Shown: positions 1 to 46,420 of the stretch, piece by piece
Position numbering within the stretch: the first letter of the stretch is position 1
Layout: the number at the start of each line of letters is the position of its first letter
NCBI GenBank assembly: GCA_963971285.1
Contig: OZ020244.1
Location: 32,922,001-32,986,000 of the forward strand
From: Astropecten irregularis
Lineage: Eukaryota > Echinodermata > Asteroidea > Paxillosida > Astropectinidae
Reading direction: 5' to 3'
Length of the DNA: 64,000 bases
Made by a program: the position numbers and the translations under genes
Notes under the pieces: model-generated
What the model was told of the DNA's origin: nothing
Seen by the model: only the letters and a program-made list of their open reading frames with translations
Database searches by the model: none

Positions 1-3000
1 GTCGAACCAACTGATGCTCCAGTCGAACCAACCGATGCTCCAGTTGAACCCACTGATGCTCCAGTCGAACCAACTGATGCTCCAGTTGAGCCCACTGATG
101 CTCCAGTCGAACCCACCGATGCTCCAGTCGAACCAACTGATGCTCCAGTCGAACCAACCGATGCTCCAGTTGAACCCACTGATGCTCCAGTCGAACCAAC
201 TGACGCTCCAGTCGAACCAACCGATGCACCAGTCAAGCCCACTGATGCTCCAGTCGAACCAACTGATGCTCCAGTCGAACCCACCGATGCTCCAGTCGAG
301 CCCACTGATGCTCCAGTCGAGCCCACTGATGCTCCAGTCGAACCAACAGATGCTCCAGTTGAACCCACCGATGCTCCAGTTGAACCCACCGATGCTCCAG
401 TTGAACCCACTGATGCTCCAGTCGAACCAACTGATGCTCCAGTTGAGCCCACTGATGCTCCAGTCGAACCAACTGAAGCTCCAGTCGAACCCACTGATGC
501 CCCAGTCGAACCAACTGATGCTCCTGTCAAGCCCACTGATGCACCAGTCAAGCCCACTGATGCTCCAGTCGAACCCACTGATGCTCCAGTTGAGCCCACT
601 GATGCTCCAGTCGAACCCACCGATGCTCCGGTCGAACCAACTGATGCTCCAGTCGAACCAACCTATTATCCAGTTGAACCCACTGATGCTCCAGTCGAAC
701 CAACTGACGCTCAAGTCGAACCAACCGATGCACCAGTCAAGCCCACTGATGCTCCAGTCGAGCCCACTGATGCTCCAGTCGAACCAACAGATGCTCCAGT
801 TGAACCCACCGATGCTCCAGTTGAACCCACTCATGCTCCAGTTGAACCCACTGATGCTCCAGTCGAACCAACTGATGCTCCAGTTGAGCCCACTGATGCT
901 CCAGTCGAACCAACTGAAGCTCCAGTCGAACCCACTGATGCCCCAGTCGAACCAACTGAAGCTCCTGTCAAGTCCACTGATGCACCAGTCAAGCCCACTG
1001 ATGCTCCAGTCGAACCCACTGATGCTCCAGTTGAGCCCACTGATGCTCCAGTCGAACCCACCGATGCTCCAGTCGAACCTACTGATGCTCCAGTCGAACC
1101 AACCGATGCTCCAGTTGAACCCACTGATGCTCCAGTCGAACCAACTGACGCTCCAGTCGAACCAACTGATGCACCAGTCGAACCAACCGATGCTCCAGTC
1201 GAACCCACCGATGCTCCAGTCGAACCAACTGATGCTCCAGTCGAACCCACCGATGCTCCAGTCGAGCCCACTGTTGCTCCAGTCGAACCAACTGATGCTC
1301 CAGTCGAACCAACCGATGCTCCAGTTGAGCCCACTGATGCTCCAGTCGAACCAACTGACGCTCCAGTCGAACCAACCGATGCACCAGTCAAGCCCACTGA
1401 TGCTCCAGTCAAACCAACTGATGCTCCAGTCGAACCCACCGATGCTCCAGTCGAGCCCACTGATGCTCCAGTCGAGCCCACTGATGCTCCAGTCGAACCA
1501 ACTGATGCTCCAGTCAAACCAACAGATGCTCCAGTTGAACCCACCGATGCTCCAGTTGAACCCACTGATGCCCCAGTCGAACCAACTGATGCTCCTGCCG
1601 AGCCAATTGATCCTCCGGTCGAGCCAACTGATGCCTCTGTTAAACGAACTGATGCCCCAGTCGAACCAACTGATGCTCCAGTCAAACCAACTGATGCTCC
1701 AGTCAAACCAACCGATGCTCCAGTTGAACCCACTGATGCTCCAGTCGAACCAACTGATGCTCCTGTCAAGCCCACTGATGCACCAGTCGAACCAACTGAT
1801 GCTCCAGTTGAGCCCACTGATGCTCCAGTCGAACCAACTGAAGCTCCAGTCGAACCCACTGATGCCCCAGTCGAACCAACTGACGCTCCAGTCGAACCAA
1901 CTGATGCACCAGTCGAACCAACCGATGCACCAGTCAAGCCCACTGATGCTCCAGTCGAACCAACTGATGCTCCAGTCGAACCCACCGATGCTCCAGTCGA
2001 GCCCACTGATGCTCCAGTCGAACCAACTGATGCTCCAGTCGAACCAACCGATGCTCCAGTTGAGCCCACTGATGCTCCAGTCGAACCCACTGACGCTCCA
2101 GTCGAACCAACCGATGCACCAGTCAAGCCCACTGATGCTCCAGTCAAACCAACTGATGCTCCAGTCGAACCCACCGATGCTCCAGTCGAGCCCACTGATG
2201 CTCCAGTCGAGCCCACTGATGCTCCAGTCGAACCAACAGATGCTCCAGTTGAACCCACCGATGCTCCAGTTGAACCCACTGATGCCCCAGTCGAACCAAC
2301 TGATGCTCCTGCCGAGCCAATTGATCCTCCGGTCGAGCCAACTGATGCCTCTGTTAAACGAACTGATGCCCCAGTCGAACCAACTGATGCTCCAGTCAAA
2401 CCAACTGATGCTCCAGTCAAACCAACCGATGCTCCAGTTGAACCCACTGATGCTCCAGTCGAACCAACTGATGCTCCTGTCAAGCCCACTGATGCACCAG
2501 TCAAGCCCACTGATGCTCCAGTCGAAACCACTGATGCTCCAGTTGAGCCCACTGATGCTCCAGTCGAACCCACCGATGCTCCGGTCGAACCAACTGATGC
2601 TCCAGTCGAACCAACCGATGCCCCAGTTGAACCAACTGATGCTCCAGTCGAACCAACTGACGCTCCAGTCGAACCAACTGATGCACCAGTCGAACCAACC
2701 GATGCACCAGTCAAGCCCACTGATGCTCCAGTTGAACCAACCGATGCTCCAGTTGAACCCACTGATGCTCCAGTCGAACCAACTGACGCTCCAGTCGAAC
2801 CAACTGATGCACCAGTTGAACCCACTGATGCTCCAGTCGAGCCCACCGATGCTCCAGTCGAGCCCACTGATGCCCCAGTCGAACCAACTGATGCTCCTGT
2901 CAAGCCCACTGATGCACCAGTCAAGCCCACTGATGCTTCAGTCGAACCCACTGATGCTCCAGTTGAGCCCACTGATGCTCCAGTCGAACCCACCGATGCT

Positions 3001-6000
3001 CCAGTCGAACCAACTGATGCTCCAGTCGAACCAACCGATGCTCCAGTTGAACCCACTGATGCTCCAGTCGAACCAACTGACGCTCCAGTCGAACCAACCG
3101 ATGCACCAGTCAAGCCCACTGATGCTCCAGTTGAACCCACTGATGCTCCAGTCGAACCCACTGACGCTCCAGTCGAACCAACCGATGCACCAGTCAAGCC
3201 CACTGATGCTCCAGTCGAACCAACTGATGCTCCAGTCAAACCAACCGATGCTCCAGTTGAACCCACTGATGCTCCAGTCGAACCAACTGACGCTCCAGTC
3301 GAACCAACTGATGCACCAGTTGAACCCACTGATGCTCCAGTCGAGCCCACCGATGCTCCAGTCGAGCCCACTGATGCCCCAGTCGAACCAACTGATGCTC
3401 CTGTCAAGCCCACTGATGCACCAGTCAAGCCCACTGATGCTCCAGTCGAACCAACTGATGCTCCAGTCGAACCCACCGATGCTCCATTCGAGCCCACTGA
3501 TGCTCCAGTCGAGCCCACTGATGCTCCAGTCGAACCAACAGATGCTCCAGTTGAACCCACCGATGCTCCAGTTGAACCCACCGATGCTCCAGTTGAACCC
3601 ACTGATGCTCCAGTCGAACCAACTGATGCTCCAGTTGAGCCCACTGATGCTCCAGTCGAACCAACTGAAGCTCCAGTCGAACCCACTGATGCCCCAGTCG
3701 AACCAACTGATGCTCCTGTCAAGCCCACTGATGCACCAGTCAAGCCCACTGATGCTCCAGTCGAACCCACTGATGCTCCAGTTGAGCCCACTGATGCTCC
3801 AGTCGAACCCACCGATGCTCCGGTCGAACCAACTGACGCTCCAGTCGAACCAACTGATGCACCAGTCGAACCCACCGATGCTCCAGTCGAGCCCACTGAT
3901 GCTCCAGTCGAACCAACTGATGCTCCAGTCGAACCAACCGATGCTCCAGTTGAGCCCACTGATGCTCCAGTCGAACCCACTGACGCTCCAGTCGAACCAA
4001 CCGATGCACCAGTCAAGCCCACTGATGCTCCAGTCAAACCAACTGATGCTCCAGTCGAACCCACCGATGCTCCAGTCGAGCCCACTGATGCTCCAGTCGA
4101 GCCCACTGATGCTCCAGTCGAACCAACAGATGCTCCAGTTGAACCCACCGATGCTCCAGTTGAACCCACTGATGCCCCAGTCGAACCAACTGATGCTCCT
4201 GCCGAGCCAATTGATCCTCCGGTCGAGCCAACTGATGCCTCTGTTAAACGAACTGATGCCCCAGTCGAACCAACTGATGCTCCAGTCAAACCAACTGATG
4301 CTCCAGTCAAACCAACCGATGCTCCAGTTGAACCCACTGATGCTCCAGTCGAACCAACTGATGCTCCTGTCAAGCCCACTGATGCACCAGTCAAGCCCAC
4401 TGATGCTCCAGTCGAAACCACTGATGCTCCAGTTGAGCCCACTGATGCTCCAGTCGAACCCACCGATGCTCCGGTCGAACCAACTGATGCTCCAGTCGAA
4501 CCAACCGATGCCCCAGTTGAACCAACTGATGCTCCAGTCGAACCAACTGACGCTCCAGTCGAACCAACTGATGCACCAGTCGAACCAACCGATGCACCAG
4601 TCAAGCCCACTGATGCTCCAGTTGAACCAACCGATGCTCCAGTTGAACCCACTGATGCTCCAGTCGAACCAACTGACGCTCCAGTCGAACCAACTGATGC
4701 ACCAGTTGAACCCACTGATGCTCCAGTCGAGCCCACCGATGCTCCAGTCGAGCCCACTGATGCCCCAGTCGAACCAACTGATGCTCCTGTCAAGCCCACT
4801 GATGCACCAGTCAAGCCCACTGATGCTTCAGTCGAACCCACTGATGCTCCAGTTGAGCCCACTGATGCTCCAGTCGAACCCACCGATGCTCCAGTCGAAC
4901 CAACTGATGCTCCAGTCGAACCAACTGATGCTCCAGTCGAACCCACCGATGCTCCAGTCGAGCCCACTGATGCTCCAGTCGAGCCCACTGATGCTCCAGT
5001 CGAACCAACAGATGCTCCAGTTGAACCCACCGATGCTCCAGTTGAACCCACCGATGCTCCAGTTGAACCCACTGATGCTCCAGTCGAACCCACTGATGCC
5101 CCAGTCGAACCAACTGATGCTCCTGTCAAGCCCACTGATGCACCAGTCAAGCCCACTGATGCTCCAGTCGAACCCACTGATGCTCCAGTTGAGCCCACTG
5201 ATGCTCCAGTCGAACCCACCGATGCTCCGGTCGAACCAACTGACGCTCCAGTCGAACCAACTGATGCACCAGTCGAACCCACCGATGCTCCAGTCGAGCC
5301 CACTGATGCTCCAGTCGAACCAACTGATGCTCCAGTCGAACCAACCGATGCTCCAGTTGAGCCCACTGATGCTCCAGTCGAACCCACTGACGCTCCAGTC
5401 GAACCAACCGATGCACCAGTCAAGCCCACTGATGCTCCAGTCAAACCAACTGATGCTCCAGTCGAACCCACCGATGCTCCAGTCGAGCCCACTGATGCTC
5501 CAGTCGAGCCCACTGATGCTCCAGTCGAGCCCACTGATGCTCCAGTCGAACCAACAGATGCTCCAGTTGAACCCACCGATGCTCCAGTTGAACCCACTGA
5601 TGCCCCAGTCGAACCAACTGATGCTCCTGCCGAGCCAATTGATCCTCCGGTCGAGCCAACTGATGCCTCTGTTAAACGAACTGATGCCCCAGTCGAACCA
5701 ACTGATGCTCCAGTCAAACCAACTGATGCTCCAGTCAAACCAACCGATGCTCCAGTTGAACCCACTGATGCTCCAGTCGAACCAACTGATGCTCCTGTCA
5801 AGCCCACTGATGCACCAGTCAAGCCCACTGATGCTCCAGTCGAAACCACTGATGCTCCAGTTGAGCCCACTGATGCTCCAGTCGAACCCACCGATGCTCC
5901 GGTCGAACCAACTGATGCTCCAGTCGAACCAACCGATGCCCCAGTTGAACCAACTGATGCTCCAGTCGAACCAACTGACGCTCCAGTCGAACCAACTGAT

Positions 6001-9000
6001 GCACCAGTCGAACCAACCGATGCACCAGTCAAGCCCACTGATGCTCCAGTTGAACCAACCGATGCTCCAGTTGAACCCACTGATGCTCCAGTCGAACCAA
6101 CTGACGCTCCAGTCGAACCAACTGATGCACCAGTTGAACCCACTGATGCTCCAGTCGAGCCCACCGATGCTCCAGTCGAGCCCACTGATGCCCCAGTCGA
6201 ACCAACTGATGCTCCTGTCAAGCCCACTGATGCACCAGTCAAGCCCACTGATGCTTCAGTCGAACCCACTGATGCTCCAGTTGAGCCCACTGATGCTCCA
6301 GTCGAACCCACCGATGCTCCAGTCGAACCAACTGATGCTCCAGTCGAACCAACTGATGCTCCAGTCGAACCCACCGATGCTCCAGTCGAGCCCACTGATG
6401 CTCCAGTCGAGCCCACTGATGCTCCAGTCGAACCAACAGATGCTCCAGTTGAACCCACCGATGCTCCAGTTGAACCCACCGATGCTCCAGTTGAACCCAC
6501 TGATGCTCCAGTCGAACCAACTGATGCTCCAGTTGAGCCCACTGATGCTCCAGTCGAACCAACTGAAGCTCCAGTCGAACCCACTGATGCCCCAGTCGAA
6601 CCAACTGATGCTCCTGTCAAGCCCACTGATGCACCAGTCAAGCCCACTGATGCTCCAGTCGAACCCACTGATGCTCCAGTTGAGCCCACTGATGCTCCAG
6701 TCGAACCCACCGATGCTCCGGTCGAACCAACTGACGCTCCAGTCGAACCAACTGATGCACCAGTCGAACCCACCGATGCTCCAGTCGAGCCCACTGATGC
6801 TCCAGTCGAACCAACTGATGCTCCAGTCGAACCAACCGATGCTCCAGTTGAGCCCACTGATGCTCCAGTCGAACCCACTGACGCTCCAGTCGAACCAACC
6901 GATGCACCAGTCAAGCCCACTGATGCTCCAGTCAAACCAACTGATGCTCCAGTCGAACCCACCGATGCTCCAGTCGAGCCCACTGATGCTCCAGTCGAGC
7001 CCACTGATGCTCCAGTCGAACCAACAGATGCTCCAGTTGAACCCACCGATGCTCCAGTTGAACCCACTGATGCCCCAGTCGAACCAACTGATGCTCCTGC
7101 CGAGCCAATTGATCCTCCGGTCGAGCCAACTGATGCCTCTGTTAAACGAACTGATGCCCCAGTCGAACCAACTGATGCTCCAGTCAAACCAACTGATGCT
7201 CCAGTCAAACCAACCGATGCTCCAGTTGAACCCACTGATGCTCCAGTCGAACCAACTGATGCTCCTGTCAAGCCCACTGATGCACCAGTCAAGCCCACTG
7301 ATGCTCCAGTCGAAACCACTGATGCTCCAGTTGAGCCCACTGATGCTCCAGTCGAACCCACCGATGCTCCGGTCGAACCAACTGATGCTCCAGTCGAACC
7401 AACCGATGCCCCAGTTGAACCAACTGATGCTCCAGTCGAACCAACTGACGCTCCAGTCGAACCAACTGATGCACCAGTCGAACCAACCGATGCACCAGTC
7501 AAGCCCACTGATGCTCCAGTTGAACCAACCGATGCTCCAGTTGAACCCACTGATGCTCCAGTCGAACCAACTGACGCTCCAGTCGAACCAACTGATGCAC
7601 CAGTTGAACCCACTGATGCTCCAGTCGAGCCCACCGATGCTCCAGTCGAGCCCACTGATGCCCCAGTCGAACCAACTGATGCTCCTGTCAAGCCCACTGA
7701 TGCACCAGTCAAGCCCACTGATGCTTCAGTCGAACCCACTGATGCTCCAGTTGAGCCCACTGATGCTCCAGTCGAACCCACCGATGCTCCAGTCGAACCA
7801 ACTGATGCTCCAGTCGAACCAACCGATGCTCCAGTTGAACCCACTGATGCTCCAGTCGAACCAACTGACGCTCCAGTCGAACCAACCGATGCACCAGTCA
7901 AGCCCACTGATGCTCCAGTTGAACCCACTGATGCTCCAGTCGAACCCACTGACGCTCCAGTCGAACCAACCGATGCACCAGTCAAGCCCACTGATGCTCC
8001 AGTCGAACCAACTGATGCTCCAGTCAAACCAACCGATGCTCCAGTTGAACCCACTGATGCTCCAGTCGAACCAACTGACGCTCCAGTCGAACCAACTGAT
8101 GCACCAGTTGAACCCACTGATGCTCCAGTCGAGCCCACCGATGCTCCAGTCGAGCCCACTGATGCCCCAGTCGAACCAACTGATGCTCCTGTCAAGCCCA
8201 CTGATGCACCAGTCAAGCCCACTGATGCTCCAGTCGAACCAACTGATGCTCCAGTCGAACCCACCGATGCTCCAGTCGAGCCCACTGATGCTCCAGTCGA
8301 GCCCACTGATGCTCCAGTCGAACCAACAGATGCTCCAGTTGAACCCACCGATGCTCCAGTTGAACCCACCGATGCTCCAGTTGAACCCACTGATGCTCCA
8401 GTCGAACCAACTGATGCTCCAGTTGAGCCCACTGATGCTCCAGTCGAACCAACTGAAGCTCCAGTCGAACCCACTGATGCCCCAGTCGAACCAACTGATG
8501 CTCCTGTCAAGCCCACTGATGCACCAGTCAAGCCCACTGATGCTCCAGTCGAACCCACTGATGCTCCAGTTGAGCCCACTGATGCTCCAGTCGAACCCAC
8601 CGATGCTCCGGTCGAACCAACTGATGCTCCAGTCGAACCAACCGATGCTCCAGTTGAACCCACTGATGCTCCAGTCGAACCAACTGACGCTCAAGTCGAA
8701 CCAACCGATGCACCAGTCAAGCCCACTGATGCTCCAGTCGAGCCCACTGATGCTCCAGTCGAACCAACAGATGCTCCAGTTGAACCCACCGATGCTCCAG
8801 TTGAACCCACTCATGCTCCAGTTGAACCCACTGATGCTCCAGTCGAACCAACTGATGCTCCATTTGAGCCCACTGATGCTCCAGTCGAACCAACTGAAGC
8901 TCCAGTCGAACCAACCGATGCACCAGTCAAGCCCACTGATGCTCCAGTCAAACCAACTGATGCTCCAGTCGAACCCACCGATGCTCCAGTCGAGCCCACT

Positions 9001-12000
9001 GATGCTCCAGTCGAGCCCACTGATGCTCCAGTCGAACCAACAGATGCTCCAGTTGAACCCACCGATGCTCCAGTTGAACCCACTGATGCCCCAGTCGAAC
9101 CAACTGATGCTCCTGCCGAGCCAATTGATCCTCCGGTCGAGCCAACTGATGCCTCTGTTAAACGAACTGATGCCCCAGTCGAACCAACTGATGCTCCAGT
9201 CAAACCAACTGATGCTCCAGTCAAACCAACCGATGCTCCAGTTGAACCCACTGATGCTCCAGTCGAACCAACTGATGCTCCTGTCAAGCCCACTGATGCA
9301 CCAGTCAAGCCCACTGATGCTCCAGTCGAACCCACTGATGCTCCAGTTGAGCCCACTGATGCTCCGGTCGAACCAACTGATGCTCCGGTCGAACCAACTG
9401 ATGCTCCAGTCGAACCAACCGATGCCCCAGTTGAACCCACTGATGCTCCAGTCGAACCAACTGACGCTCCAGTCGAACCAACTGATGCACCAGTCGAACC
9501 AACCGATGCACCAGTCAAGCCCACTGATGCTCCAGTTGAACCAACCGATGCTCCAGTTGAACCCACTGACGCTCCAGTCGAACCAACTGATGCACCAGTT
9601 GAACCCACTGATGCTCCAGTCGAGCCCACCGATGCTCCAGTCGAGCCCACTGATGCCCCAGTCGAACCAACTGATGCTCCTGTCAAGCCCACTGATGCAC
9701 CAGTCAAGCCCACTGATGCTCCAGTCGAACCAACTGATGCTCCAGTCGAACCCACCGATGCTCCAGTCGAGCCCACTGATGCTCCAGTCGAGCCCACTGA
9801 TGCTCCAGTCGAACCAACCGATGCTCCAGTTGAACCCACTGATGCTCCAGTCGAACCAACTGACGCTCAAGTCGAACCAACCGATGCACCAGTCAAGCCC
9901 ACTGATGCTCCAGTCGAGCCCACTGATGCTCCAGTCGAACCAACAGATGCTCCAGTTGAACCCACCGATGCTCCAGTTGAACCCACTCATGCTCCAGTTG
10001 AACCCACTGATGCTCCAGTCGAACCAACTGATGCTCCATTTGAGCCCACTGATGCTCCAGTCGAACCAACTGAAGCTCCAGTCGAACCAACCGATGCACC
10101 AGTCAAGCCCACTGATGCTCCAGTCAAACCAACTGATGCTCCAGTCGAACCCACCGATGCTCCAGTCGAGCCCACTGATGCTCCAGTCGAGCCCACTGAT
10201 GCTCCAGTTGAACCCACCGATGCTCCAGTTGAACCCACTGATGCCCCAGTCGAACCAACTGATGCTCCTGCCGAGCCAATTGATCCTCCGGTCGAGCCAA
10301 CTGATGCCTCTGTTAAACGAACTGATGCCCCAGTCGAACCAACTGATGCTCCAGTCAAACCAACTGATGCTCCAGTCAAACCAACCGATGCTCCAGTTGA
10401 ACCCACTGATGCTCCAGTCGAACCAACTGATGCTCCTGTCAAGCCCACTGATGCACCAGTCAAGCCCACTGATGCTCCAGTCGAACCCACTGATGCTCCA
10501 GTTGAGCCCACTGATGCTCCAGTCGAACCCACCGATGCTCCGGTCGAACCAACTGATGCTCCAGTCGAACCAACCGATGCCCCAGTTGAACCCACTGATG
10601 CTCCAGTCGAACCAACTGACGCTCCAGTCGAACCAACTGATGCACCAGTCGAACCAACCGATGCACCAGTCAAGCCCACTGATGCTCCAGTTGAACCAAC
10701 CGATGCTCCAGTTGAACCCACTGATGCTCCAGTCCAACCAACTGACGCTCCAGTCGAACCAACTGATGCACCAGTTGAACCCACTGATGCTCCAGTCGAG
10801 CCCACCGATGCTCCAGTCGAGCCCACTGATGCCCCAGTCGAACCAACTGATGCTCCTGTCAAGCCCACTGATGCACCAGTCAAGCCCACTGATGCTCCAG
10901 TCGAACCAACTGATGCTCCAGTCGAACCCACCGATGCTCCAGTCGAGCCCACTGATGCTCCAGTCGAGCCCACTGATGCTCCAGTCGAACCAACAGATGC
11001 TCCAGTTGAACCCACCGATGCTCCAGTTGAACCCACCGATGCTCCAGTTGAACCCACTGATGCTCCAGTCGAACCAACTGATGCTCCTGTCAAGCCCACT
11101 GATGCACCAGTCAAGCCCACTGATGCTCCAGTCGAACCCACTGATGCTCCAGTTGAACCCACTGATGCTCCAGTCGAACCCACCGATGCTCTAGTCGAAC
11201 CAACTGATGCTCCAGTCGAACCAACCGATGCTCCAGTTGAACCCACTGATGCTCCAGTCGAACCAACTGATGCTCCAGTTGAGCCCACTGATGCTCCAGT
11301 CGAACCCACCGATGCTCCAGTCGAACCAACTGATGCTCCAGTCGAACCAACCGATGCACCAGTCAAGCCCACTGATGCTCCAGTCAAGCCCACTGATGCT
11401 CCAGTCGAGCCCACTGATGCCCCAGTCGAACCAACTGATGCTCCTGTCAAGCCCACTGATGCACCAGTCAAGCCCACTGATGCTCCAGTCGAACCAACTG
11501 ATGCTCCAGTCGAACCCACCGATGCTCCAGTCGAGCCCACTGATGCTCCAGTCGAGCCCACTGATGCTCCAGTCGAACCAACAGATGCTCCAGTTGAACC
11601 CACCGATGCTCCAGTTGAACCCACCGATGCTCCAGTTGAACCCACTGATGCTCCAGTCGAACCAACTGATGCTCCAGTTGAGCCCACTGATGCTCCAGTC
11701 GAACCAACTGAAGCTCCAGTCGAACCCACTGATGCCCCAGTCGAACCAACTGATGCTCCTGTCAAGCCCACTGATGCACCAGTCAAGCCCACTGATGCTC
11801 CAGTCGAACCCACTGATGCTCCAGTTGAGCCCACTGATGCTCCAGTCGAACCCACCGATGCTCCGGTCGAACCAACTGATGCTCCAGTCGAACCAACCGA
11901 TGCTCCAGTTGAACCCACTGATGCTCCAGTCGAACCAACTGACGCTCAAGTCGAACCAACCGATGCACCAGTCAAGCCCACTGATGCTCCAGTCGAGCCC

Positions 12001-33000: not shown

Positions 33001-36000
33001 ACTGATTTTCCAGTCGAACCAACTGATGCTCCAGTCGAACCCACCGATGCTCCAGTCGAGCCCACTGATGCTCCAGTCGAACCAACTGATGCTCCAGTCG
33101 AACCCACCGATGCTCCAGTCGAGCCCACTGATGCTCCAGTCGAGCCCACTGATGCTCCAGTCGAACCAACAGATGCTCCAGTTGAACCCACTGATGCTCC
33201 AGTTGAACCCACCGATGCTCCAGTTGAACCCACTGATACTCCAGTCGAACCAACTGATGCTCCAGTTGAGCCCACTGATGCTCCAGTCGAACCAACTGAA
33301 GCTCCAGTCGAACCCACTGATGCCCCAGTCGAGCCCACTGATGCTCCTGTCAAGCCCACTGATGCACCAGTCAAGCCCACTGATGCTCCAGTCGAACCCA
33401 CTGATGCTCCAGTTGAGCCCACTGATGCTCCAGGCGAACCCACCGATGCTCCGGTCGAACCAACTGATGCTCCAGTCGAACCAACCGATGCTCCAGTTGA
33501 ATCCACTGATGCTCCAGTTGAACCAACTGACGCTCCAGTCGAACCAACTGATGCACCAGTCGAACCAACCGATGCACCAGTCAAGCCCACTGATGCTCCA
33601 GTCGAACCAACTGATGCTCCAGTCGAACCCACCAATGCTCCAGTCGAGCCCACTGATGCTCCAGTCGAGCCCACTGATGCTCCAGTCGAACCAACTGACG
33701 CTCCAGTCGAACCAACCGATGCACCAGTCAAGCCCACTGATGCTCCAGTCGAGCCCACTGATGCTCCAGTCGAACCAACAGATGCTCCAGTTGAACCCAC
33801 TGATGCTCCAGTTGAACCCACCGATGCTCCAGTTGAACCCACTGATGCTCCAGTCGAACCAACTGATGCTCCAGTTGAGCCCACTGATGCTCCAGTCGAA
33901 CCAACTGAAGCTCCAGTCGAACCCACTGATGCCCCAGTCGAACCCACTGATGCTCCTGTCAAGCCCACTGATGCACCAGTCAAGCCCACTGATGCTCCAG
34001 TCGAACCCACTGATGCTCCAGTTGAGCCCACTGATGCTCCAGTCGAACCCACCGATGCTCCGGTCGAACCAACTGATGCTCCAGTCGAACCAACCGATGC
34101 TCCAGTTGAACCCACTGATGCTCCAGTCAAACGAACTGACGCTCCAGTCGAACCAACCGATGCACCAGTCGAACCCACTGATGCTCCAGTTGAGCCCACT
34201 GATGCTCCAGTCGAACCCACTGATGCTCCAGTTGAGCCCACTGATGCTCCAGTCGAACCAACCGATGCTCCAGTCGAACCAACTGATGCCCCAGTCGAAC
34301 CAACTGGTGCTCCTGCCGAGCCAATTGATCCTCCGGTCGAGCCAACTGATGCCTCTGTTAAACGAACTGATGCTCCAGTCGAGCCAATTGATCCTCCAGT
34401 CGAACCAACAGATGCTCCAGTCGAACCAACAGATGCTCCAGTCGAACCCACTGATGCCCCAGTCGAACCAACTGATGCTCCTGTCAAGCCCACTGATGCA
34501 CCAGTCAAGCCCACTGATGCTCCAGTCGAACCCACTGATGCTCCAGTTGAGCCCACTGATGCTCCAGTCGAACCCACCGATGCTCCAGTCGAACCAACTG
34601 ATGCTCCAGTCGAACCAACCGATGCTCCAGTTGAACCCACTGATGCTCCAGTCGAACCAACTGATGCTCCAGTCGAACCAACCGATGCTCCAGTTGAACC
34701 CACTGATGCTCCAGTCGAACCAACTGACGCTCCAGTCGAACCAACTGATGCACCAGTCGAACCAACCGATGCACCAGTCAAGCCCACTGATTTTCCAGTC
34801 GAACCAACTGATGCTCCAGTCGAACCCACCGATGCTCCAGTCGAGCCCACTGATGCTCCAGTCGAACCAACTGATGCTCCAGTCGAACCCACCGATGCTC
34901 CAGTCGAGCCCACTGATGCTCCAGTCGAGCCCACTGATGCTCCAGTCGAACCAACAGATGCTCCAGTTGAACCCACTGATGCTCCAGTTGAACCCACCGA
35001 TGCTCCAGTTGAACCCACTGATACTCCAGTCGAACCAACTGATGCTCCAGTTGAGCCCACTGATGCTCCAGTCGAACCAACTGAAGCTCCAGTCGAACCC
35101 ACTGATGCCCCAGTCGAGCCCACTGATGCTCCTGTCAAGCCCACTGATGCACCAGTCAAGCCCACTGATGCTCCAGTCGAACCCACTGATGCTCCAGTTG
35201 AGCCCACTGATGCTCCAGTCGAACCCACCGATGCTCCGGTCGAACCAACTGATGCTCCAGTCGAACCAACCGATGCTCCAGTTGAATCCACTGATGCTCC
35301 AGTTGAACCAACTGACGCTCCAGTCGAACCAACTGATGCACCAGTCGAACCAACCGATGCACCAGTCAAGCCCACTGATGCTCCAGTCGAACCAACTGAT
35401 GCTCCAGTCGAACCCACCAATGCTCCAGTCGAGCCCTCTGATGCTCCAGTCGAGCCCACTGATGCTCCAGTCGAACCAACTGACGCTCCAGTCGAACCAA
35501 CCGATGCACCAGTCAAGCCCACTGATGCTCCAGTCGAGCCCACTGATGCTCCAGTCGAACCAACAGATGCTCCAGTTGAACCCACTGATGCTCCAGTTGA
35601 ACCCACCGATGCTCCAGTTGAACCCACTGATGCTCCAGTCGAACCAACTGATGCTCCAGTTGAGCCCACTGATGCTCCAGTCGAACCAACTGAAGCTCCA
35701 GTCGAACCCACTGATGCCCCAGTCGAACCCACTGATGCTCCTGTCAAGCTCACTGATGCACCAGTTAAGCCCACTGATGCTCCAGTCGAACCCACTGATG
35801 CTCCAGTTGAGCCCACTGATGCTCCAGTCGAACCCACCGATGCTCCGGTCGAACCAACTGATGCTCCAGTCGAACCAACCGATGCTCCAGTTGAACCCAC
35901 TGATGCTCCAGTCAAACGAACTGACGCTCCAGTCGAACCAACCGATGCACCAGTCGAACCCACTGATGCTCCAGTTGAGCCCACTGATGCTCCAGTCGAA

Positions 36001-39000
36001 CCCACTGATGCTCCAGTTGAGCCCACTGATGCTCCAGTCGAACCAACCGATGCTCCAGTCGAACCAACTGATGCCCCAGTCGAACCAACTGGTGCTCCTG
36101 CCGAGCCAATTGATCCTCCGGTCGAGCCAACTGATGCCTCTGTTAAACGAACTGATGCTCCAGTCGAGCCAATTGATCCTCCAGTCGAACCAACAGATGC
36201 TCCAGTCGAACCAACAGATGCTCCAGTCGAACCCACTGATGCCCCAGTCGAACCAACTGATGCTCCTGTCAAGCCCACTGATGCACCAGTCAAGCCCACT
36301 GATGCTCCAGTCGAACCAACTGATGCTCCAGTCGAACCAACCGATGCTCCAGTTGAGCCCACTGATGCTCCAGTCGAACCAACTGACGCTCCAGTCGAAC
36401 CAACCGATGCACCAGTCAAGCCCACTGATGCTCCAGTCAAACCAACTGATGCTCCAGTCGAACCCACCGATGCTCCAGTCGAGCTCACTGATGCTCCAGT
36501 CGAGCCCACTGATGCTCCAGTCGAACCAACAGATGCTCCAGTCGAGCCCACTGATGCTCCAGTCGAACCCACTGATGCTCCAGTCGAACCAACTGATGCT
36601 CCAGTCGAACCAACCGATGCTCCAGTTGAGCCCACTGATGCTCCAGTCGAACCAACTGACGCTCCAGTCGAACCAACCGATGCACCAGTCGAACCCACTG
36701 ATGCTCCAGTTGAGCCCACTGATGCTCCAGTCGAACCCACTGATGCTCCAGTTGAGCCCACTGATGCTCCAGTCGAACCAACCGATGCTCCAGTCGAACC
36801 AACTGATGCCCCAGTCGAACCAACTGGTGCTCCTGCCGAGCCAATTGATCCTCCGGTCGAGCCAACTGATGCCTCTGTTAAACGAACTGATGCTCCAGTC
36901 GAGCCAATTGATCCTCCAGTCGAACCAACAGATGCTCCAGTCGAACCAACAGATGCTCCAGTCGAACCCACTGATGCCCCAGTCGAACCAACTGATGCTC
37001 CTGTCAAGCCCACTGATGCACCAGTCAAGCCCACTGATGCTCCAGTCGAACCCACTGATGCTCCAGTTGAGCCCACTGATGCTCCAGTCGAACCCACCGA
37101 TGCTCCAGTCGAACCAACTGATGCTCCAGTCGAACCAACCGATGCTCCAGTTGAACCCACTGATGCTCCAGTCGAACCAACTGATGCTCCAGTCGAACCA
37201 ACCGATGCTCCAGTTGAACCCACTGATGCTCCAGTCGAACCAACTGACGCTCCAGTCGAACCAACTGATGCACCAGTCGAACCAACCGATGCACCAGTCA
37301 AGCCCACTGATTTTCCAGTCGAACCAACTGATGCTCCAGTCGAACCCACCGATGCTCCAGTCGAGCCCACTGATGCTCCAGTCGAACCAACTGATGCTCC
37401 AGTCGAACCCACCGATGCTCCAGTCGAGCCCACTGATGCTCCAGTCGAGCCCACTGATGCTCCAGTCGAACCAACAGATGCTCCAGTTGAACCCACTGAT
37501 GCTCCAGTTGAACCCACCGATGCTCCAGTTGAACCCACTGATACTCCAGTCGAACCAACTGATGCTCCAGTTGAGCCCACTGATGCTCCAGTCGAACCAA
37601 CTGAAGCTCCAGTCGAACCCACTGATGCCCCAGTCGAGCCCACTGATGCTCCTGTCAAGCCCACTGATGCACCAGTCAAGCCCACTGATGCTCCAGTCGA
37701 ACCCACTGATGCTCCAGTTGAGCCCACTGATGCTCCAGTCGAACCCACCGATGCTCCGGTCGAACCAACTGATGCTCCAGTCGAACCAACCGATGCTCCA
37801 GTTGAATCCACTGATGCTCCAGTTGAACCAACTGACGCTCCAGTCGAACCAACTGATGCACCAGTCGAACCAACCGATGCACCAGTCAAGCCCACTGATG
37901 CTCCAGTCGAACCAACTGATGCTCCAGTCGAACCCACCAATGCTCCAGTCGAGCCCACTGATGCTCCAGTCGAGCCCACTGATGCTCCAGTCGAACCAAC
38001 TGACGCTCCAGTCGAACCAACCGATGCACCAGTCAAGCCCACTGATGCTCCAGTCGAGCCCACTGATGCTCCAGTCGAACCAACAGATGCTCCAGTTGAA
38101 CCCACTGATGCTCCAGTTGAACCCACCGATGCTCCAGTTGAACCCACTGATGCTCCAGTCGAACCAACTGATGCTCCAGTTGAGCCCACTGATGCTCCAG
38201 TCGAACCAACTGAAGCTCCAGTCGAACCCACTGATGCCCCAGTCGAACCCACTGATGCTCCTGTCAAGCCCACTGATGCACCAGTCAAGCCCACTGATGC
38301 TCCAGTCGAACCCACTGATGCTCCAGTTGAGCCCACTGATGCTCCAGTCGAACCCACCGATGCTCCGGTCGAACCAACTGATGCTCCAGTCGAACCAACC
38401 GATGCTCCAGTTGAACCCACTGATGCTCCAGTCAAACGAACTGACGCTCCAGTCGAACCAACCGATGCACCAGTCGAACCCACTGATGCTCCAGTTGAGC
38501 CCACTGATGCTCCAGTCGAACCCACTGATGCTCCAGTTGAGCCCACTGATGCTCCAGTCGAACCAACCGATGCTCCAGTCGAACCAACTGATGCCCCAGT
38601 CGAACCAACTGGTGCTCCTGCCGAGCCAATTGATCCTCCGGTCGAGCCAACTGATGCCTCTGTTAAACGAACTGATGCTCCAGTCGAGCCAATTGATCCT
38701 CCAGTCGAACCAACAGATGCTCCAGTCGAACCAACAGATGCTCCAGTCGAACCCACTGATGCCCCAGTCGAACCAACTGATGCTCCTGTCAAGCCCACTG
38801 ATGCACCAGTCAAGCCCACTGATGCTCCAGTCGAACCCACTGATGCTCCAGTTGAGCCCACTGATGCTCCAGTCGAACCCACCGATGCTCCAGTCGAACC
38901 AACTGATGCTCCAGTCGAACCAACCGATGCTCCAGTTGAACCCACTGATGCTCCAGTCGAACCAACTGATGCTCCAGTCGAACCAACCGATGCTCCAGTT

Positions 39001-42000
39001 GAACCCACTGATGCTCCAGTCGAACCAACTGACGCTCCAGTCGAACCAACTGATGCACCAGTCGAACCAACCGATGCACCAGTCAAGCCCACTGATTTTC
39101 CAGTCGAACCAACTGATGCTCCAGTCGAACCCACCGATGCTCCAGTCGAGCCCACTGATGCTCCAGTCGAACCAACTGATGCTCCAGTCGAACCCACCGA
39201 TGCTCCAGTCGAGCCCACTGATGCTCCAGTCGAGCCCACTGATGCTCCAGTCGAACCAACAGATGCTCCAGTTGAACCCACTGATGCTCCAGTTGAACCC
39301 ACCGATGCTCCAGTTGAACCCACTGATACTCCAGTCGAACCAACTGATGCTCCAGTTGAGCCCACTGATGCTCCAGTCGAACCAACTGAAGCTCCAGTCG
39401 AACCCACTGATGCCCCAGTCGAGCCCACTGATGCTCCTGTCAAGCCCACTGATGCACCAGTCAAGCCCACTGATGCTCCAGTCGAACCCACTGATGCTCC
39501 AGTTGAGCCCACTGATGCTCCAGTCGAACCCACCGATGCTCCGGTCGAACCAACTGATGCTCCAGTCGAACCAACCGATGCTCCAGTTGAATCCACTGAT
39601 GCTCCAGTTGAACCAACTGACGCTCCAGTCGAACCAACTGATGCACCAGTCGAACCAACCGATGCACCAGTCAAGCCCACTGATGCTCCAGTCGAACCAA
39701 CTGATGCTCCAGTCGAACCCACCAATGCTCCAGTCGAGCCCTCTGATGCTCCAGTCGAGCCCACTGATGCTCCAGTCGAACCAACTGACGCTCCAGTCGA
39801 ACCAACCGATGCACCAGTCAAGCCCACTGATGCTCCAGTCGAGCCCACTGATGCTCCAGTCGAACCAACAGATGCTCCAGTTGAACCCACTGATGCTCCA
39901 GTTGAACCCACCGATGCTCCAGTTGAACCCACTGATGCTCCAGTCGAACCAACTGATGCTCCAGTTGAGCCCACTGATGCTCCAGTCGAACCAACTGAAG
40001 CTCCAGTCGAACCCACTGATGCCCCAGTCGAACCCACTGATGCTCCTGTCAAGCTCACTGATGCACCAGTTAAGCCCACTGATGCTCCAGTCGAACCCAC
40101 TGATGCTCCAGTTGAGCCCACTGATGCTCCAGTCGAACCCACCGATGCTCCGGTCGAACCAACTGATGCTCCAGTCGAACCAACCGATGCTCCAGTTGAA
40201 CCCACTGATGCTCCAGTCAAACGAACTGACGCTCCAGTCGAACCAACCGATGCACCAGTCGAACCCACTGATGCTCCAGTTGAGCCCACTGATGCTCCAG
40301 TCGAACCCACTGATGCTCCAGTTGAGCCCACTGATGCTCCAGTCGAACCAACCGATGCTCCAGTCGAACCAACTGATGCCCCAGTCGAACCAACTGGTGC
40401 TCCTGCCGAGCCAATTGATCCTCCGGTCGAGCCAACTGATGCCTCTGTTAAACGAACTGATGCTCCAGTCGAGCCAATTGATCCTCCAGTCGAACCAACA
40501 GATGCTCCAGTCGAACCAACAGATGCTCCAGTCGAACCCACTGATGCCCCAGTCGAACCAACTGATGCTCCTGTCAAGCCCACTGATGCACCAGTCAAGC
40601 CCACTGATGCTCCAGTCGAACCCACTGATGCTCCAGTTGAGCCCACTGATGCTCCAGTCGAACCCACCGATGCTCCAGTCGAACCAACTGATGCTCCAGT
40701 CGAACCAACCGATGCTCCAGTTGAACCCACTGATGCTCCAGTCGAACCAACTGATGCTCCAGTCGAACCAACCGATGCTCCAGTTGAACCCACTGATGCT
40801 CCAGTCGAACCAACTGACGCTCCAGTCGAACCAACTGATGCACCAGTCGAACCAACCGATGCACCAGTCAAGCCCACTGATTTTCCAGTCGAACCAACTG
40901 ATGCTCCAGTCGAACCCACCGATGCTCCAGTCGAGCCCACTGATGCTCCAGTCGAACCAACTGATGCTCCTGTCAAGCTCACTGATGCACCAGTTAAGCC
41001 CACTGATGCTCCAGTCGAACCCACTGATGCTCCAGTTGAGCCCACTGATGCTCCAGTCGAACCCACCGATGCTCCGGTCGAACCAACTGATGCTCCAGTC
41101 GAACCAACCGATGCTCCAGTTGAACCCACTGATGCTCCAGTCGAACCCACTGATGCTCCAGTTGAGCCCACTGATGCTCCAGTCGAACCCACCGATGCTC
41201 CAGTCGAACCTACTGATGCTCCAGTCGAACCCACCGATTCTCCAGTCGAGCCCACTGATGTTCCAGTCGAACCAACTGATGCTCCAGTCGAACCAACCGA
41301 TGCTCCAGTTGAGCCCACTGATGCTCCAGTCGAACCAACTGACGCTCCAGTCGAACCAACTGACGCTCCAGTCGAACCAACCGATGCACCAGTCAAGCCC
41401 ACTGATGCTCCAGTCGAACCAACTGATGCTCCAGTCGAACCCACCGATGCTCCAGTCGAGCCCACTGATGCTCCAGTCGAGCCCACTGATGCTCCAGTCG
41501 AACCAACAGATGCTCCAGTTGAACCCACCGATGCTCCAGTTGAACCCACCGATGCTCCAGTTGAACCCACTGATGCTCCAGTCGAACCAACTGATGCTCC
41601 AGTTGAGCCCACTGATGCTCCAGTCGAACCAACTGAAGCTCCAGTCGAACCCACTGATGCCCCAGTCGAACCAACTGACGCTCCAGTCGAACCAACTGAT
41701 GCACCAGTCGAACCAACCGATGCACCAGTCAAGCCCACTGATGCTCCAGTCGAACCAACTGATGCTCCAGTCGAACCCACCGATGCTCCAGTCGAGCCCA
41801 CTGATGCTCCAGTCGAACCAACTGATGCTCCAGTCGAACCAACCGATGCTCCAGTTGAGCCCACTGATGCTCCAGTCGAACCAACTGACGCTCCAGTCGA
41901 ACCAACCGATGCACCAGTCAAGCCCACTGATGCTCCAGTCGAACCAACTGATGCTCCAGTCGAACCAACCGATGCTCCAGTTGAGCCCACTGATGCTCCA

Positions 42001-43009
42001 GTCGAACCAACTGACGCTCCAGTCGAACCAACCGATGCACCAGTCAAGCCCACTGATGCTCCAGTCAAACCAACTGATGCTCCAGTCGAACCCACCGATG
42101 CTCCAGTCGAGCTCACTGATGCTCCAGTCGAGCCCACTGATGCTCCAGTCGAACCAACAGATGCTCCAGTCGAGCCCACTGATGCTCCAGTCGAACCCAC
42201 TGATGCTCCAGTCGAACCAACTGATGCTCCAGTCGAACCAACCGATGCTCCAGTTGAGCCCACTGATGCTCCAGTCGAACCAACTGACGCTCCAGTCGAA
42301 CCAACCGATGCACCAGTCGAACCCACTGATGCTCCAGTTGAGCCCACTGATGCTCCAGTCGAACCCACTGATGCTCCAGTTGAGCCCACTGATGCTCCAG
42401 TCGAACCAACCGATGCTCCAGTCGAACCAACTGATGCCCCAGTCGAACCAACTGGTGCTCCTGCCGAGCCAATTGATCCTCCGGTCGAGCCAACTGATGC
42501 CTCTGTTAAACGAACTGATGCTCCAGTCGAGCCAATTGATCCTCCAGTCGAACCAACAGATGCTCCAGTCGAACCAACCGATGCTCCAGTTGAACCCACT
42601 GATGCTCCAGTCGAACCAACTGATGCTCCAGTCAAACCAACTGATGCTCCAGTCGAACCAACCGATGCTCTAGTTGAACCCACTGATGCTCCAGTCCAAC
42701 CAACTGATGCTCCAGTCGAACCAACCGATGCTCCAGTTGAACCCACTGATGCTCCAGTCGAACCAACTGACGCTCCAGTCGAACCAACCGATGCACCAGC
42801 CAAGCCCACTGATGCTCCAGTCGAACCCACTGATGCTGCAGTCGAACCCACTGATGCTCCGGTCAAGCCCACTGATGCTCCAGTTGAGCCCACTGATGCC
42901 CCGGTCGAGCCCACAGATGCTCCAGTCGAACCCACTGATGCTCCAGTCGAAGCAACTGATGCTCCTGTCAAGCCAACGGATGCCCCTGTCGTGCCCACTG
43001 ATGTACCAG
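1..43009 (+). CDS. Giant VEPTDAP-heptad stalk exon of a Kazal-domain protein (5' end outside window)
   Basis: This is a single open exon in frame +1 from the left edge to 43009. It encodes 2,048 consecutive heptads, consensus V-E-P-T-D-A-P. Common variants are E to K at position 2 (V-K-P-T-D-A-P), D to E, and rarer H, N, F, T or S changes. I saw no in-frame stop; TAG triplets such as at 11192 lie in frame +2 only. There is no in-frame Met, so the start and any signal peptide must lie upstream. Variation between units falls almost entirely on third codon positions of this frame (GTC/GTT, GAA/GAG, CCA/CCC, ACT/ACC/ACA, GAT/GAC), as expected for a translated repeat. The exon ends in the donor CCAG|GTAAGC at 43009/43010 in phase 1 and joins the Kazal exon at 43577. 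From its composition I infer a strongly acidic, disordered, extracellular stalk of about 1.45 MDa in this window alone. Its function is unknown. A pure satellite is the alternative, but the codon pattern and the splice into a Kazal domain argue against it. Confidence 0.92.
8150..14665. repeat. Tandem segmental duplication of 3,255 bp (155 heptads)
   Basis: Two adjacent copies lie at roughly 8150-11405 and 11406-14665. Singleton variants recur at exactly +3255: GCTCAAGTC at 8689/11944, CCATTTGAG at 8861/12116, a GTCCAA codon at 10732/13987, and the Leu codon CTA at 11191/14446. I noticed only rare substitutions between the copies, such as CAT for GAT near 13305, so the duplication looks recent. 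Boundaries are approximate because the underlying units are so similar. Confidence 0.82.
21181..26304. repeat. Tandem segmental duplication of 2,562 bp (122 heptads), with a partial third copy
   Basis: The blocks at about 21181-23742 and 23743-26304 match at a constant offset of 2562. Diagnostic pairs are the GAAACACCT variant at 22053/24615, the Leu codon CTAGTT at 22321/24883 and the marker module at 21841/24403. A partial further copy follows, with the same CTAGTT variant at 26437, 1,554 bp after the second. The large offset, a multiple of 21, indicates unequal exchange in register. Confidence 0.8.
31975..40584. repeat. Tandem segmental duplication of 4,305 bp (205 heptads) containing an older 1,785-bp unit
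   Basis: The two copies are about 31975-36279 and 36280-40584. Private variants recur at +4305: GAGCTCACT at 32176/36481 and GAGCCCTCT at 35431/39736. Within each copy a 1,785-bp (85-heptad) period is visible, for example marker modules at 32530/34315 and 36835/38620 and ATTTTCC (Asp-Phe-Pro) heptads. The nesting shows at least two rounds: a 1,785-bp duplication, then duplication of the whole block. A related block near 41390-42500 matches 31460-32570 at an offset of 9,933 bp. Confidence 0.82.
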
Positions 43010-43576
43010 GTAAGCCTTCTGCTTCCTCGTTTTGTTTTTTATTTTTGAGCCCTTTGAGCCCATTGTTTTTCATGTTTTTTCATGTTTTACCCCTTTAATA
43101 GCCCTTTTGACTATAATAATACAAAAGACAGCCAAATATAGGTACTGATTTTCTATGTTCTTTTCTTTTTTTCTTGTTCAAAATTCAGCACAAATATTTC
43201 ATATTTCAGAACATTCATGGTAAAAACAGAAGTATGCTACAATGCCCTACTTTAAAATGTATTGTTAGATTTGGCAGAAAAGAAAAGCCACATCTTGACA
43301 GCACACATTCTAAAGCTGTGACTTGTTTATACTACACAGAATTCTCTAATAGGTGTCATCCGCTTGCCTTCATAATTATGAAAAAAAGTCACATTTTCTA
43401 TAATTATAGCCCCACTCCTCTTTTTAAGATATGAATGTTTGTGCAGATAAACTTGTCATCCGGGAAAAGGGAAACCGTATGATAGTGTTTAATTAACATC
43501 ATTTAATTCTGAAAAGAGTCAGCATAATGTAGTGTAATGTACTCTAATTCTTCCTCTCTTTTTTAATTTTCTGCAG
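43010..43576 (+). other. Intron between the stalk exon and the Kazal exon (phase 1)
   Basis: The intron is 567 bp, from the donor GTAAGC to the acceptor TTTTCTGCAG with a T-rich tract before it. A short 86-codon ORF inside it has no recognisable features. Introns of the same phase border the Kazal exon of the downstream gene, fitting a shuffled phase-1 module. Confidence 0.88.
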
Positions 43577-43758
43577 TCACAACAGTATCGACGGTTGATG
43601 TGGATGTGTGCCGAATAGAGTGCAGTGTCGCTACCGATCCGGGGCTGGTGTGTGGTTCAGATGGCAACACTTATCCCTTTAACTGTGTCCTGGAGCTGTT
43701 GTCTTGCCTTATCCCAGAAATGAACTTAACAGTACTGTATGAGGGTCCGTGTTTTTAA
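43577..43758 (+). CDS. Last coding exon of the giant repeat protein: C-terminal Kazal domain
   Basis: The acceptor TTTTCTGCAG ends at 43576. The split codon G|TC restores the frame of the heptad exon. A linker of about ten residues (TTVSTVDVDV) leads into C-RIE-C-(9 residues)-C-GSDGNTYPFN-C-VLELLS-C-(14 residues)-C, then Phe and a TAA stop at 43756-43758. Six cysteines, the core CGSDGNTYPFNC and the terminal G-P-C are the hallmarks of a Kazal/follistatin-type serine protease inhibitor domain. In classical Kazal inhibitors the P1 residue is the second after Cys2, which here is Val. That would suggest an elastase-like target if the domain is inhibitory, but this is inference. The domain sits one residue from the C-terminus and is the only globular part of the protein in the window. 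Confidence 0.93.
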
Positions 43759-44265
43759 ATTCGGTAAATCTCAGGGATTTACATTGACCCAGACGTAAAT
43801 GGGCATTGTATGTGTAAATATAAATTTTTTGCGAAAAAAAGGACAATTTTCGGATCATACCCATTTCCTTTTATTTTCTTTTTCTAAGACATATTAATAC
43901 TCAACTTGTTTATTTTTTACCTTTTATATTCTGTGTATAAATGTAAACATTGTGTGTTCGTAGATATTAATGCTGCAGTCGTTTTTCATACTATAACAAT
44001 TGGATTATGGAATTTTTGAGGGTCTTTGTACTTTGTCCTGTTGTTTTGCCGAAAATCGTGTTTTGTGTTTGTGTATGCTTACACATTGTATGAATTAAAG
44101 GTCTTGTTTAAGCTGTGTCTTTGGCACACCCATTACTATTAATGGATTTATAGTCTGTTTGTAAAAAAAAAATCACTTATAAAATAATACTAATTCATTG
44201 CAACCAAGTATTTTGTCCACTTTGTATTTGTGGTATCTGTAATAAATAAAAATGAAAGTATAACC
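43759..44265 (+). terminator. 3' UTR and poly(A) signals of the giant repeat gene
   Basis: The T-rich 3' UTR follows the TAA. Candidate signals are ATTAAA at 44094-44099 and a double AATAAATAAA at 44241-44250. I favour the latter as the main site. No further coding sequence is visible downstream on this strand until gene 2. Confidence 0.6.
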
Positions 44266-46067: not shown

Positions 46068-46420
46068 TTAAAGGTAATATGATACTTTGGGTTTTGTCAT
46101 CGAATACAGATATGGCAAAAATATCACGACAGATACAGTAACAGTCATCTGTGAAGGTTTCAGTCTCATACGATGCCCACTTGTTGAGAAAACAGTGAAA
46201 AACGGCCACAGTATTTCTTAAGTCTTTTCTCTTTTATTTTAATCTTTTAAAAGATCAAAAAGATTTTCGGTCGTTGTTTTACGAATTTTTGGATGAATAC
46301 ACCATTTCAAGCGAACATTTTTTATTTTTCTACCATCACCATCTTAATACTCTGTAAGTTACACGTAAATCTGTGACATTCCCGTTTTGGTTTCCTACCA
46401 AAGTATGATACTACCTTTAA
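46068..46420. mobile_element. TTAA-flanked MITE, copy A
   Basis: The element has near-perfect terminal inverted repeats, AGGTAATATGATACTTTGG at the left and CCAAAGTATGATACTACCT at the right, each bordered by TTAA (46068-46071 and 46417-46420). The interior, about 345 bp, has no coding capacity. TTAA duplications are characteristic of piggyBac-type transposition, although these termini do not begin with the usual CCC. Related copies lie at 48143, about 50124 and about 52435. Confidence 0.78.

What the first reader, a model, noticed from the sequence alone, without database searches (positions are those of the whole stretch)
1..43009. A single coding exon of at least 43 kb: 2,048 uninterrupted VEPTDAP heptads
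Frame +1 is open for 43,009 bases and the 5' end is not reached. This already exceeds the largest exons commonly cited in animals (the roughly 20-kb mucin and titin-class exons). The window segment alone predicts about 14,336 residues and roughly 1.45 MDa, built almost wholly from V, E, K, P, T, D and A. If the chain is extended in polyproline-II form at about 0.31 nm per residue, it would span around 4.4 micrometres. Met-requiring gene callers miss it because the true frame has no Met.
Basis: partly seen in the sequence, partly recalled or inferred. Interest (0 to 1): 0.92.

Follow-up and report, generated by a model that had tools for sequence, protein, structure and literature searches.

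The report
A 66-kilobase coding exon of heptads
An animal-type gene for a probably secreted protein carries one uninterrupted 66.5-kb coding exon made of 3,162 copies of a seven-residue unit between cysteine-rich Kazal domains, among the longest coding exons reported so far, and a good test case for how cells make and export a chain several micrometres long.

Summary
Frame +1 is open over 1-43009 (2,048 heptads) and joins in frame to a Kazal exon at 43577-43758. In the window's own assembly (475.7 Mb, organism not named) the exon runs 23,485 bases further upstream: 66,495 bp, 3,162 heptads, no stop, no indel. Before it lie a signal-peptide-like exon, a clear Kazal exon and a weaker Kazal-like exon, all joined in phase 1. 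Predicted protein: 22,379 residues, 2.28 MDa, five coding exons.

Openness alone is weak evidence, because a 21-bp period keeps frames open (frame +2 stays open for 4,269 codons). The coding case rests on the splice junctions, the flanking domains and the synonymous bias of common unit variants; rare variants look nearly neutral.

'Largest exon' is not supported: a 2026 preprint predicts human MUC12 alleles of up to 23,080 residues. Length depends on the assembly: a near-identical 17.6-kb duplication lies inside the array; without it the exon is still about 48.8 kb.

Best reading: a secreted, acidic, proline-rich, probably O-glycosylated disordered chain with Kazal caps, working like a mucin or Dumpy-type matrix polymer. 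Expression and function are untested.

The parts
1..43009 (+). 3' two thirds of the giant coding exon: 2,048 in-frame heptads (mostly VEPTDAP and VKPTDAP). The exon continues upstream to C1:32898515; the whole exon is 66,495 bp with 3,162 heptads.
43010..43576 (+). Phase-1 intron, donor gtaagc, acceptor ttttctgcag
   Evidence: predicted from sequence; no transcript seen
43577..43758 (+). Last coding exon: linker, C-terminal Kazal domain (Kazal-C) with an NLT sequon, stop codon
   Evidence: (Kazal_2 E 6.2e-9, 36.3 bits, cut-off 22.8)
43759..44246 (+). Probable 3' UTR up to the AATAAA signal at 44241; an ATTAAA lies at 44094
   Evidence: inferred, no 3' end read seen

Best explanation
This is the repeat exon of a gene for a giant secreted protein: signal peptide, Kazal-A, a weaker Kazal-like domain (Kazal-B), a short linker, 3,162 heptads, Kazal-C. 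Shown from sequence: the open frame, the phase-1 junctions, the Kazal matches, the composition (28% Pro, 14% Thr, net charge -5195 in the array, no Cys). Inferred: the chain is disordered and mostly extended (polyproline-II-like), up to about 6.9 micrometres at 0.31 nm per residue; the single Thr of each heptad, almost always in a P-T-x-x-P setting, is O-glycosylated; the chain is hard for trypsin-like enzymes to cut; it acts outside the cell as a hydrated, calcium-binding polyanionic spacer or gel, in the manner of a mucin repeat exon or of Dumpy, with the disulphide-bonded Kazal domains as protease-resistant caps or binding ends. The array grows and is homogenised by unequal exchange in units of whole heptads, while selection has kept the heptad.
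For: Five coding exons join in frame, all introns in phase 1, to 22,379 residues and 2.276 MDa. Kazal-A: Kazal_2 E 4.8e-8; Kazal-C: E 6.2e-9, and whole-sequence E 7.9e-23 to agrin, best single agrin domain 5.7e-4. Exon 1 reads MRAVVAAILCVLLVVEKVALAG with a gtaagt donor, the most hydrophobic candidate of the scan. No AGGT, GTRAG or long-pyrimidine acceptor inside the 66.5-kb exon. Unit types seen 30 times or more differ from their neighbours by 26 synonymous of 35 steps (10.7 expected, omega about 0.15); all types 64 of 149 (42.7 expected, P 0.0001). Each unit is 21 nt and differs from the consensus at 6 places at most. Units seen once crowd at both edges: 9 of the first 26, 10 of the last 26, 47 of 3,162 overall, as the MUC12 preprint reports for about half of human mucins (PMC13345508). 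Thr in P-T-x-x-P: 2,943 of 3,124; Lys before Pro: 462 of 519.
Against: No transcript, peptide or expression evidence. Unit types seen once or twice differ by 21 synonymous of 70 steps (18.7 expected, omega about 0.85, P 0.31); in the window alone 9 of 42 (11.5 expected, omega 1.39): no sign of recent constraint on single units. Kazal-B is under Pfam's cut-off (18.3 against 22.8 bits). Other ATG candidates with phase-1 donors exist in the same stretch and no signal-peptide predictor was run. The exon-2 donor is gtactg, not a strong one. Ser+Thr is only about 14.5%, low for a mucin, and each Thr has acidic neighbours, so glycosylation is a guess. No homologue of the unique parts was found. Array length depends on the assembly.
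Confidence: 0.55

Rival explanations
1. A coding repeat whose length is inflated by the assembly: the real exon is much shorter, and the near-identical blocks are false duplications or joined haplotypes.
For: Two blocks, 11,319 bp with 2 differences and 6,405 bp with 3, repeat about 17.65 kb apart, and several further blocks of 1.5-4.3 kb have 0-1 differences. In a caddisfly silk gene noisy reads gave an assembly about 10 kb short and broken, while HiFi gave one 25.8-kb exon (PMC10018877, passages).
Against: Removing the 17.6-kb block still leaves about 48.8 kb (my subtraction). The array lies within a 39-Mb contig. Private units mark both edges. The pattern occurs at no other place in the assembly, so no second array was left on another contig.
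Confidence: 0.3
2. A non-coding minisatellite that happens to be open: the 21-bp period, a multiple of three, keeps frames open, and nothing is translated across it.
For: Frames +2, -1 and -2 also stay open for more than 4,000 codons in places. Few single changes can make a stop in +1. Rare variants look neutral.
Against: Only +1 has no stop. Common variants are strongly synonymous in +1. The frame runs into phase-1 splice sites at both ends that join to Kazal exons. The heptad residues continue into degenerate edge units.
Confidence: 0.06
3. A biomineral or cuticle matrix polymer: the acidic chain binds calcium and orders or inhibits mineral, with Kazal domains as in some shell matrix proteins.
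For: Two acidic residues per heptad and net charge -5195. The next gene downstream pairs a Kazal domain with an acidic EQQDGQDNDA repeat and a Ser/Glu/Asp-rich tail. Kazal is mentioned in two shell-matrix papers (listing and abstracts only).
Against: Almost no phosphorylation-type motifs in the array: 13 S-x-E and 5 [ST]-x-x-[DE]. The tissue and the organism are unknown.
Confidence: 0.2

Closest known systems
Repeat exon of transmembrane and gel-forming mucins, above all human MUC12 (PMC13345508, passages and section 6 seen)
   Same: One huge uninterrupted coding exon of tandem repeats; Pro- and Thr-containing; degenerate units at the array edges; growth by whole units; comparable predicted protein size (MUC12 up to 23,080 residues).
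   Different: Ser+Thr only about 14.5% here and strongly acidic; Kazal domains, not SEA, EGF or VWD domains, were found in the flanking exons; seven-residue unit.
Drosophila Dumpy (PMC8520396, passages seen: isoforms about 23,000 residues, 2.5 MDa, Tango1-dependent export)
   Same: Giant extracellular, modular protein of nearly the same length, which shows that such a cargo can be exported.
   Different: Dumpy is membrane-anchored and EGF-rich (modules recalled); here one repeat exon makes up 99% of the protein and no anchor was found.
Heavy-chain fibroin of caddisflies and moths (PMC10018877, passages seen: 25.8-kb repeat exon)
   Same: Short first exons and one large repetitive exon, hard to assemble.
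   Different: Fibroin repeats are silk-forming; these are acidic and Pro-rich and lie between Kazal domains.
VEPTDAP stalks of bacterial and diatom proteins
   Same: Same heptad letter for letter, used as an extended linker outside the cell.
   Different: Fewer than about a dozen copies in the bacterial proteins I read; no shared domains; best taken as convergence.
Agrin and follistatin Kazal modules
   Same: Kazal-C aligns with agrin and follistatin domains over its six cysteines.
   Different: No other agrin or follistatin domain was found; the Kazal domains flank a giant repeat.

Membership tests
Kazal domain (PF07648) | Score over Pfam's curated cut-off in the flanking exons | tested here: met
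   Kazal-C 36.3 bits, Kazal-A 33.4 bits, cut-off 22.8; Kazal-B 18.3 bits, not met
Kazal-type protease inhibitor (function) | Inhibits a serine protease | not testable with these tools
   Needs an enzyme assay. The Kazal-C spacing (read by eye) resembles agrin/follistatin modules, which are not known mainly as inhibitors (recalled).
Mucin | Ser/Thr-rich repeat domain (about 40% Ser+Thr or more, threshold recalled) | tested here: not met
   Thr 14.11% and Ser 0.35% of the array
Mucin | VWD, SEA or EGF-like domain | tested here: not met
   Pfam scans of Kazal-C, of exons 1 and 2, of Kazal-B and of one 336-residue array piece gave Kazal families or nothing. Further exons outside the model cannot be ruled out.
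Mucin | Dense O-glycosylation | not testable with these tools
   P-T-x-x-P in 2,943 of 3,124 Thr is suggestive only; the preference is recalled, the one paper search on it found nothing
Mucin-like gene architecture | One large VNTR exon between short exons, edges degenerate | tested here: met
Secreted protein | N-terminal signal peptide | tested here: inconclusive
   Hydrophobic 22-residue first exon found by a hydropathy scan; no signal-peptide predictor and no RNA evidence
Largest known animal exon | Longer than any reported exon | tested here: not met
   MUC12 alleles up to 23,080 residues: comparable, order not decided

The most novel reading that the evidence does not exclude
A real, translated 66.5-kb exon giving a single 2.3-MDa secreted chain of 3,162 nearly identical heptads, nearly 7 micrometres long when extended: the first known Kazal-capped giant polyelectrolyte, a matrix polymer that is neither mucin nor silk nor Dumpy, with the longest fixed coding exon outside polymorphic human MUC12 alleles.
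Probability: 0.3. Interest if true: 0.82.

Novelty: new variant of a known kind. Interest (0 to 1): 0.64.

Why it matters
If real, one exon codes for about as many residues as the longest known MUC12 allele or Dumpy, with an almost invariant seven-residue unit and no cysteine or methionine. It offers a clean natural case for open questions: how a 67-kb reading frame is transcribed, spliced as one exon and translated without loss; how a multi-micrometre chain is exported; and how selection acts on a repeat when single units drift nearly neutrally. It also warns that open length in a tandem repeat with a period divisible by three is weak evidence of coding, and that trypsin-based proteomics would miss such a protein.

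Tried and rejected
Rejected: 'largest animal exon' (MUC12). Rejected as proof: openness alone. Considered and dropped: bacterial or diatom kinship through the shared heptad; the hits I read (15 of 46 sequences) share only the heptad.

Led nowhere: [16 protein letters not shown] and VKPTDAP in the paper library, 0 papers; giant-exon searches (listings only, 40 of 399, 25 of 32, 0 and 30 of 70 shown), apart from the MUC12 preprint; Kazal plus shell or mucin-like terms; tRNA and Rfam scans (nothing); protein homologues of the array plus Kazal-C end (1 candidate, none significant) and of the N-terminal part (38 candidates, none significant). These two negatives say little, since animals seem thinly covered in that database (my inference). 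Viral contigs: 0 matches. GFP family in the own genome as a clue to the organism: no match, and the tool itself said that this shows nothing. Cytochrome oxidase search to name the organism: not completed. Tandem repeats near five other Kazal places or stretches: no second heptad array.
Full report
OBSERVATION. Frame +1 has no stop from 1 to 43008 and reads as exactly 2,048 heptads: 1,531 VEPTDAP, 264 VKPTDAP, 41 types in all, coded by 94 distinct 21-mers. Tandem Repeats Finder sees one array at 1-43003 without indels. The coding frame ends at a gtaagc donor (43010) and continues at 43577 into VTTVSTVDVDVCRIEC...EGPCF-stop, a Kazal domain (Kazal_2, E 6.2e-9). An AATAAA signal follows at 44241.

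OPENNESS IS WEAK EVIDENCE. A 21-bp unit is seven codons long, so any frame without a stop in the unit stays open. Over 1-43008 the frames +1, +2, +3, -1, -2, -3 hold 0, 11, 1954, 20, 24 and 334 stops; +2 and -1 stay open for up to 4,269 codons and -2 for 4,104. In +1 only 1 of 63 single changes of the consensus makes a stop. For the whole array about 2.7 stops would be expected from 149 inferred steps, so none at all has a chance near 6.5% (my arithmetic).

WHAT DOES SUPPORT CODING. Each distinct unit was tied to its nearest commoner unit and the steps were counted, with transitions and transversions weighted apart; this is a simple scheme, not a tree. Over the whole array 64 of 149 steps are synonymous (42.7 expected, P 0.0001). 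For units seen 30 times or more it is 26 of 35 (10.7 expected, omega about 0.15). For units seen 3-29 times it is 17 of 44 (13.3 expected, P 0.14), and for units seen once or twice 21 of 70 (18.7 expected, P 0.31, omega about 0.85). In the window alone the rarest class gives 9 of 42 (11.5 expected, omega 1.39). So the heptad was kept over the long run, while recent changes look nearly neutral: single units may be dispensable and the average is what matters. That last step is inference.

THE WHOLE GENE. The window is C1:32922001-32986000 of an unnamed assembly of 475.7 Mb in 168 contigs; C1 is 39.04 Mb long. With 80 kb of upstream sequence the frame is open for 22,206 codons. The exon runs from an acceptor at C1:32898515 to 32965009: 66,495 bp, divisible by three, without Met or Cys. 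It holds 3,162 heptads in 22,134 residues, 124 distinct 21-mers, net charge -5195. Upstream lie exon 1, C1:32894896-32894962 (MRAVVAAILCVLLVVEKVALAG, donor gtaagt); exon 2, 32896731-32896925 (Kazal-A, E 4.8e-8); and exon 3, 32897713-32897913 (Kazal-B, found with an HMM of 11 Kazal sequences of this region at E 2.5e-4; Pfam 18.3 bits, under the 22.8 cut-off). All four introns are in phase 1 and the joined frame has one stop, the last codon: 22,379 residues, 2.276 MDa. Without exon 3 the frame also holds: 22,312 residues. Exon 1 was the most hydrophobic ATG candidate of a scan of the 14 kb upstream; two other listed candidates also have a phase-1 donor-like site. The upstream neighbour appears to end with a Kazal exon and a stop near C1:32882729, so I take the gene to start after that. 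Inside the 66.5-kb exon there is no AGGT, no GTRAG and no acceptor behind ten or more pyrimidines.

ARRAY HISTORY. Units seen only once number 47 in 3,162; 9 of the first 26 and 10 of the last 26 are such units. The window start, which lies inside the array, has 0 in its first 25. This is the edge decay expected of unequal exchange, and the MUC12 preprint reports it for about half of human mucins (PMC13345508, passages). Higher-order blocks are visible, such as repeated 85-heptad spacings in the 3' part. The largest near-identical blocks are 11,319 bp (2 differences) and 6,405 bp (3 differences), about 17.65 kb apart, together a 17.6-kb tandem duplication; it may be recent or an assembly fault. 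Without it the exon would be about 48.8 kb. The degenerate two-unit pattern matches 1,992 times in the assembly, forward strand only, and 1,992 times in the 144-kb stretch here, so there is no second array with that pattern.

SURROUNDINGS. The locus lies in a cluster of Kazal exons: 11 of the 91 Kazal_2 matches reported for the assembly (a lower bound, by the tool's own note) lie at C1:32.87-32.98 Mb, and 25 of the 91 on C1 (my count). The next gene downstream (52963-54587) pairs a Kazal domain (E 7.9e-12) with about 16 copies of an 11-residue EQQDGQDNDAQ-type unit and a Ser/Glu/Asp-rich tail. Kazal genes here seem to have picked up different low-complexity repeats, of which VEPTDAP is by far the longest that I saw.

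HOW IT MAY WORK. Per heptad there are two acidic residues (or one and a Lys), two Pro and one Thr. Disorder and a polyproline-II-like extended chain follow from composition (inference). Of 3,124 Thr, 2,943 sit in P-T-x-x-P, a setting that I recall as favourable for mucin-type O-glycosylation, though the acidic neighbours speak against it; my one paper search on this found nothing. Of 519 Lys, 462 precede Pro, and only 96 trypsin sites remain in 22,134 residues (median fragment 133), but bonds after Val or Ala without a following Pro number 3,235, so elastase-like enzymes could cut. I therefore favour a trypsin-resistant extracellular polyanion with Kazal caps. That the Kazal domains inhibit proteases is possible and untested.

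COMPARISON. [quoted passage not shown] Dumpy: isoforms of about 23,000 residues and 2.5 MDa, exported by a Tango1-dependent route (PMC8520396, passages). Caddisfly H-fibroin: one 25.8-kb repeat exon, broken in a noisier assembly (PMC10018877, passages). The heptad itself occurs in short stalks of bacterial surface proteins and diatom proteins (46 hits at E <= 0.001 among the 8,000 candidates scored; 15 sequences read), and two full units in a row were found in one of the species genomes of the genome collection, a Ruminococcus MAG (4 stretches), and in no viral contig (shorter pattern). Shared domains were not seen, so I take this as convergence. Neither the heptad nor two variants occur in the paper library; this says nothing about papers outside it.

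VERDICT. New variant of a known kind. Its true length, expression and role need reads, RNA and protein.

Noticed in passing
window 52963-54587: Downstream gene: Kazal exon (52963-53124) spliced in phase 1 to a repeat exon (53464-54587) with about 16 copies of an EQQDGQDNDAQ-type 11-residue unit and a Ser/Glu/Asp-rich tail; first exon not found.
   Followed up: partly
L015-L013 (C1:32862001-32892000), Kazal exons at C1:32869679-32882710: A run of eight Kazal exons upstream of the giant gene, with Pro/Thr-rich, Gly-rich and Asp/Glu-rich stretches between or beside them; gene borders not worked out.
   Followed up: partly
C1:32903479-32938821 (partly in the window): Near-identical 17.6-kb tandem duplication within the array, 5 differences in about 17.7 kb.
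   Followed up: partly
window 60549-62215: Inverted repeat with arms of about 290 nt (92-94% complementary) around 1.1 kb, perhaps a mobile element.
   Followed up: no
window 46115-46315, 50256-50447, 52568-52658: Dispersed related repeat in both orientations, 75-87% complementary, source unknown.
   Followed up: no
P0003, P0004 and other hits: The exact VEPTDAP heptad recurs as a short stalk in bacterial surface proteins and diatom proteins; looks convergent.
   Followed up: partly
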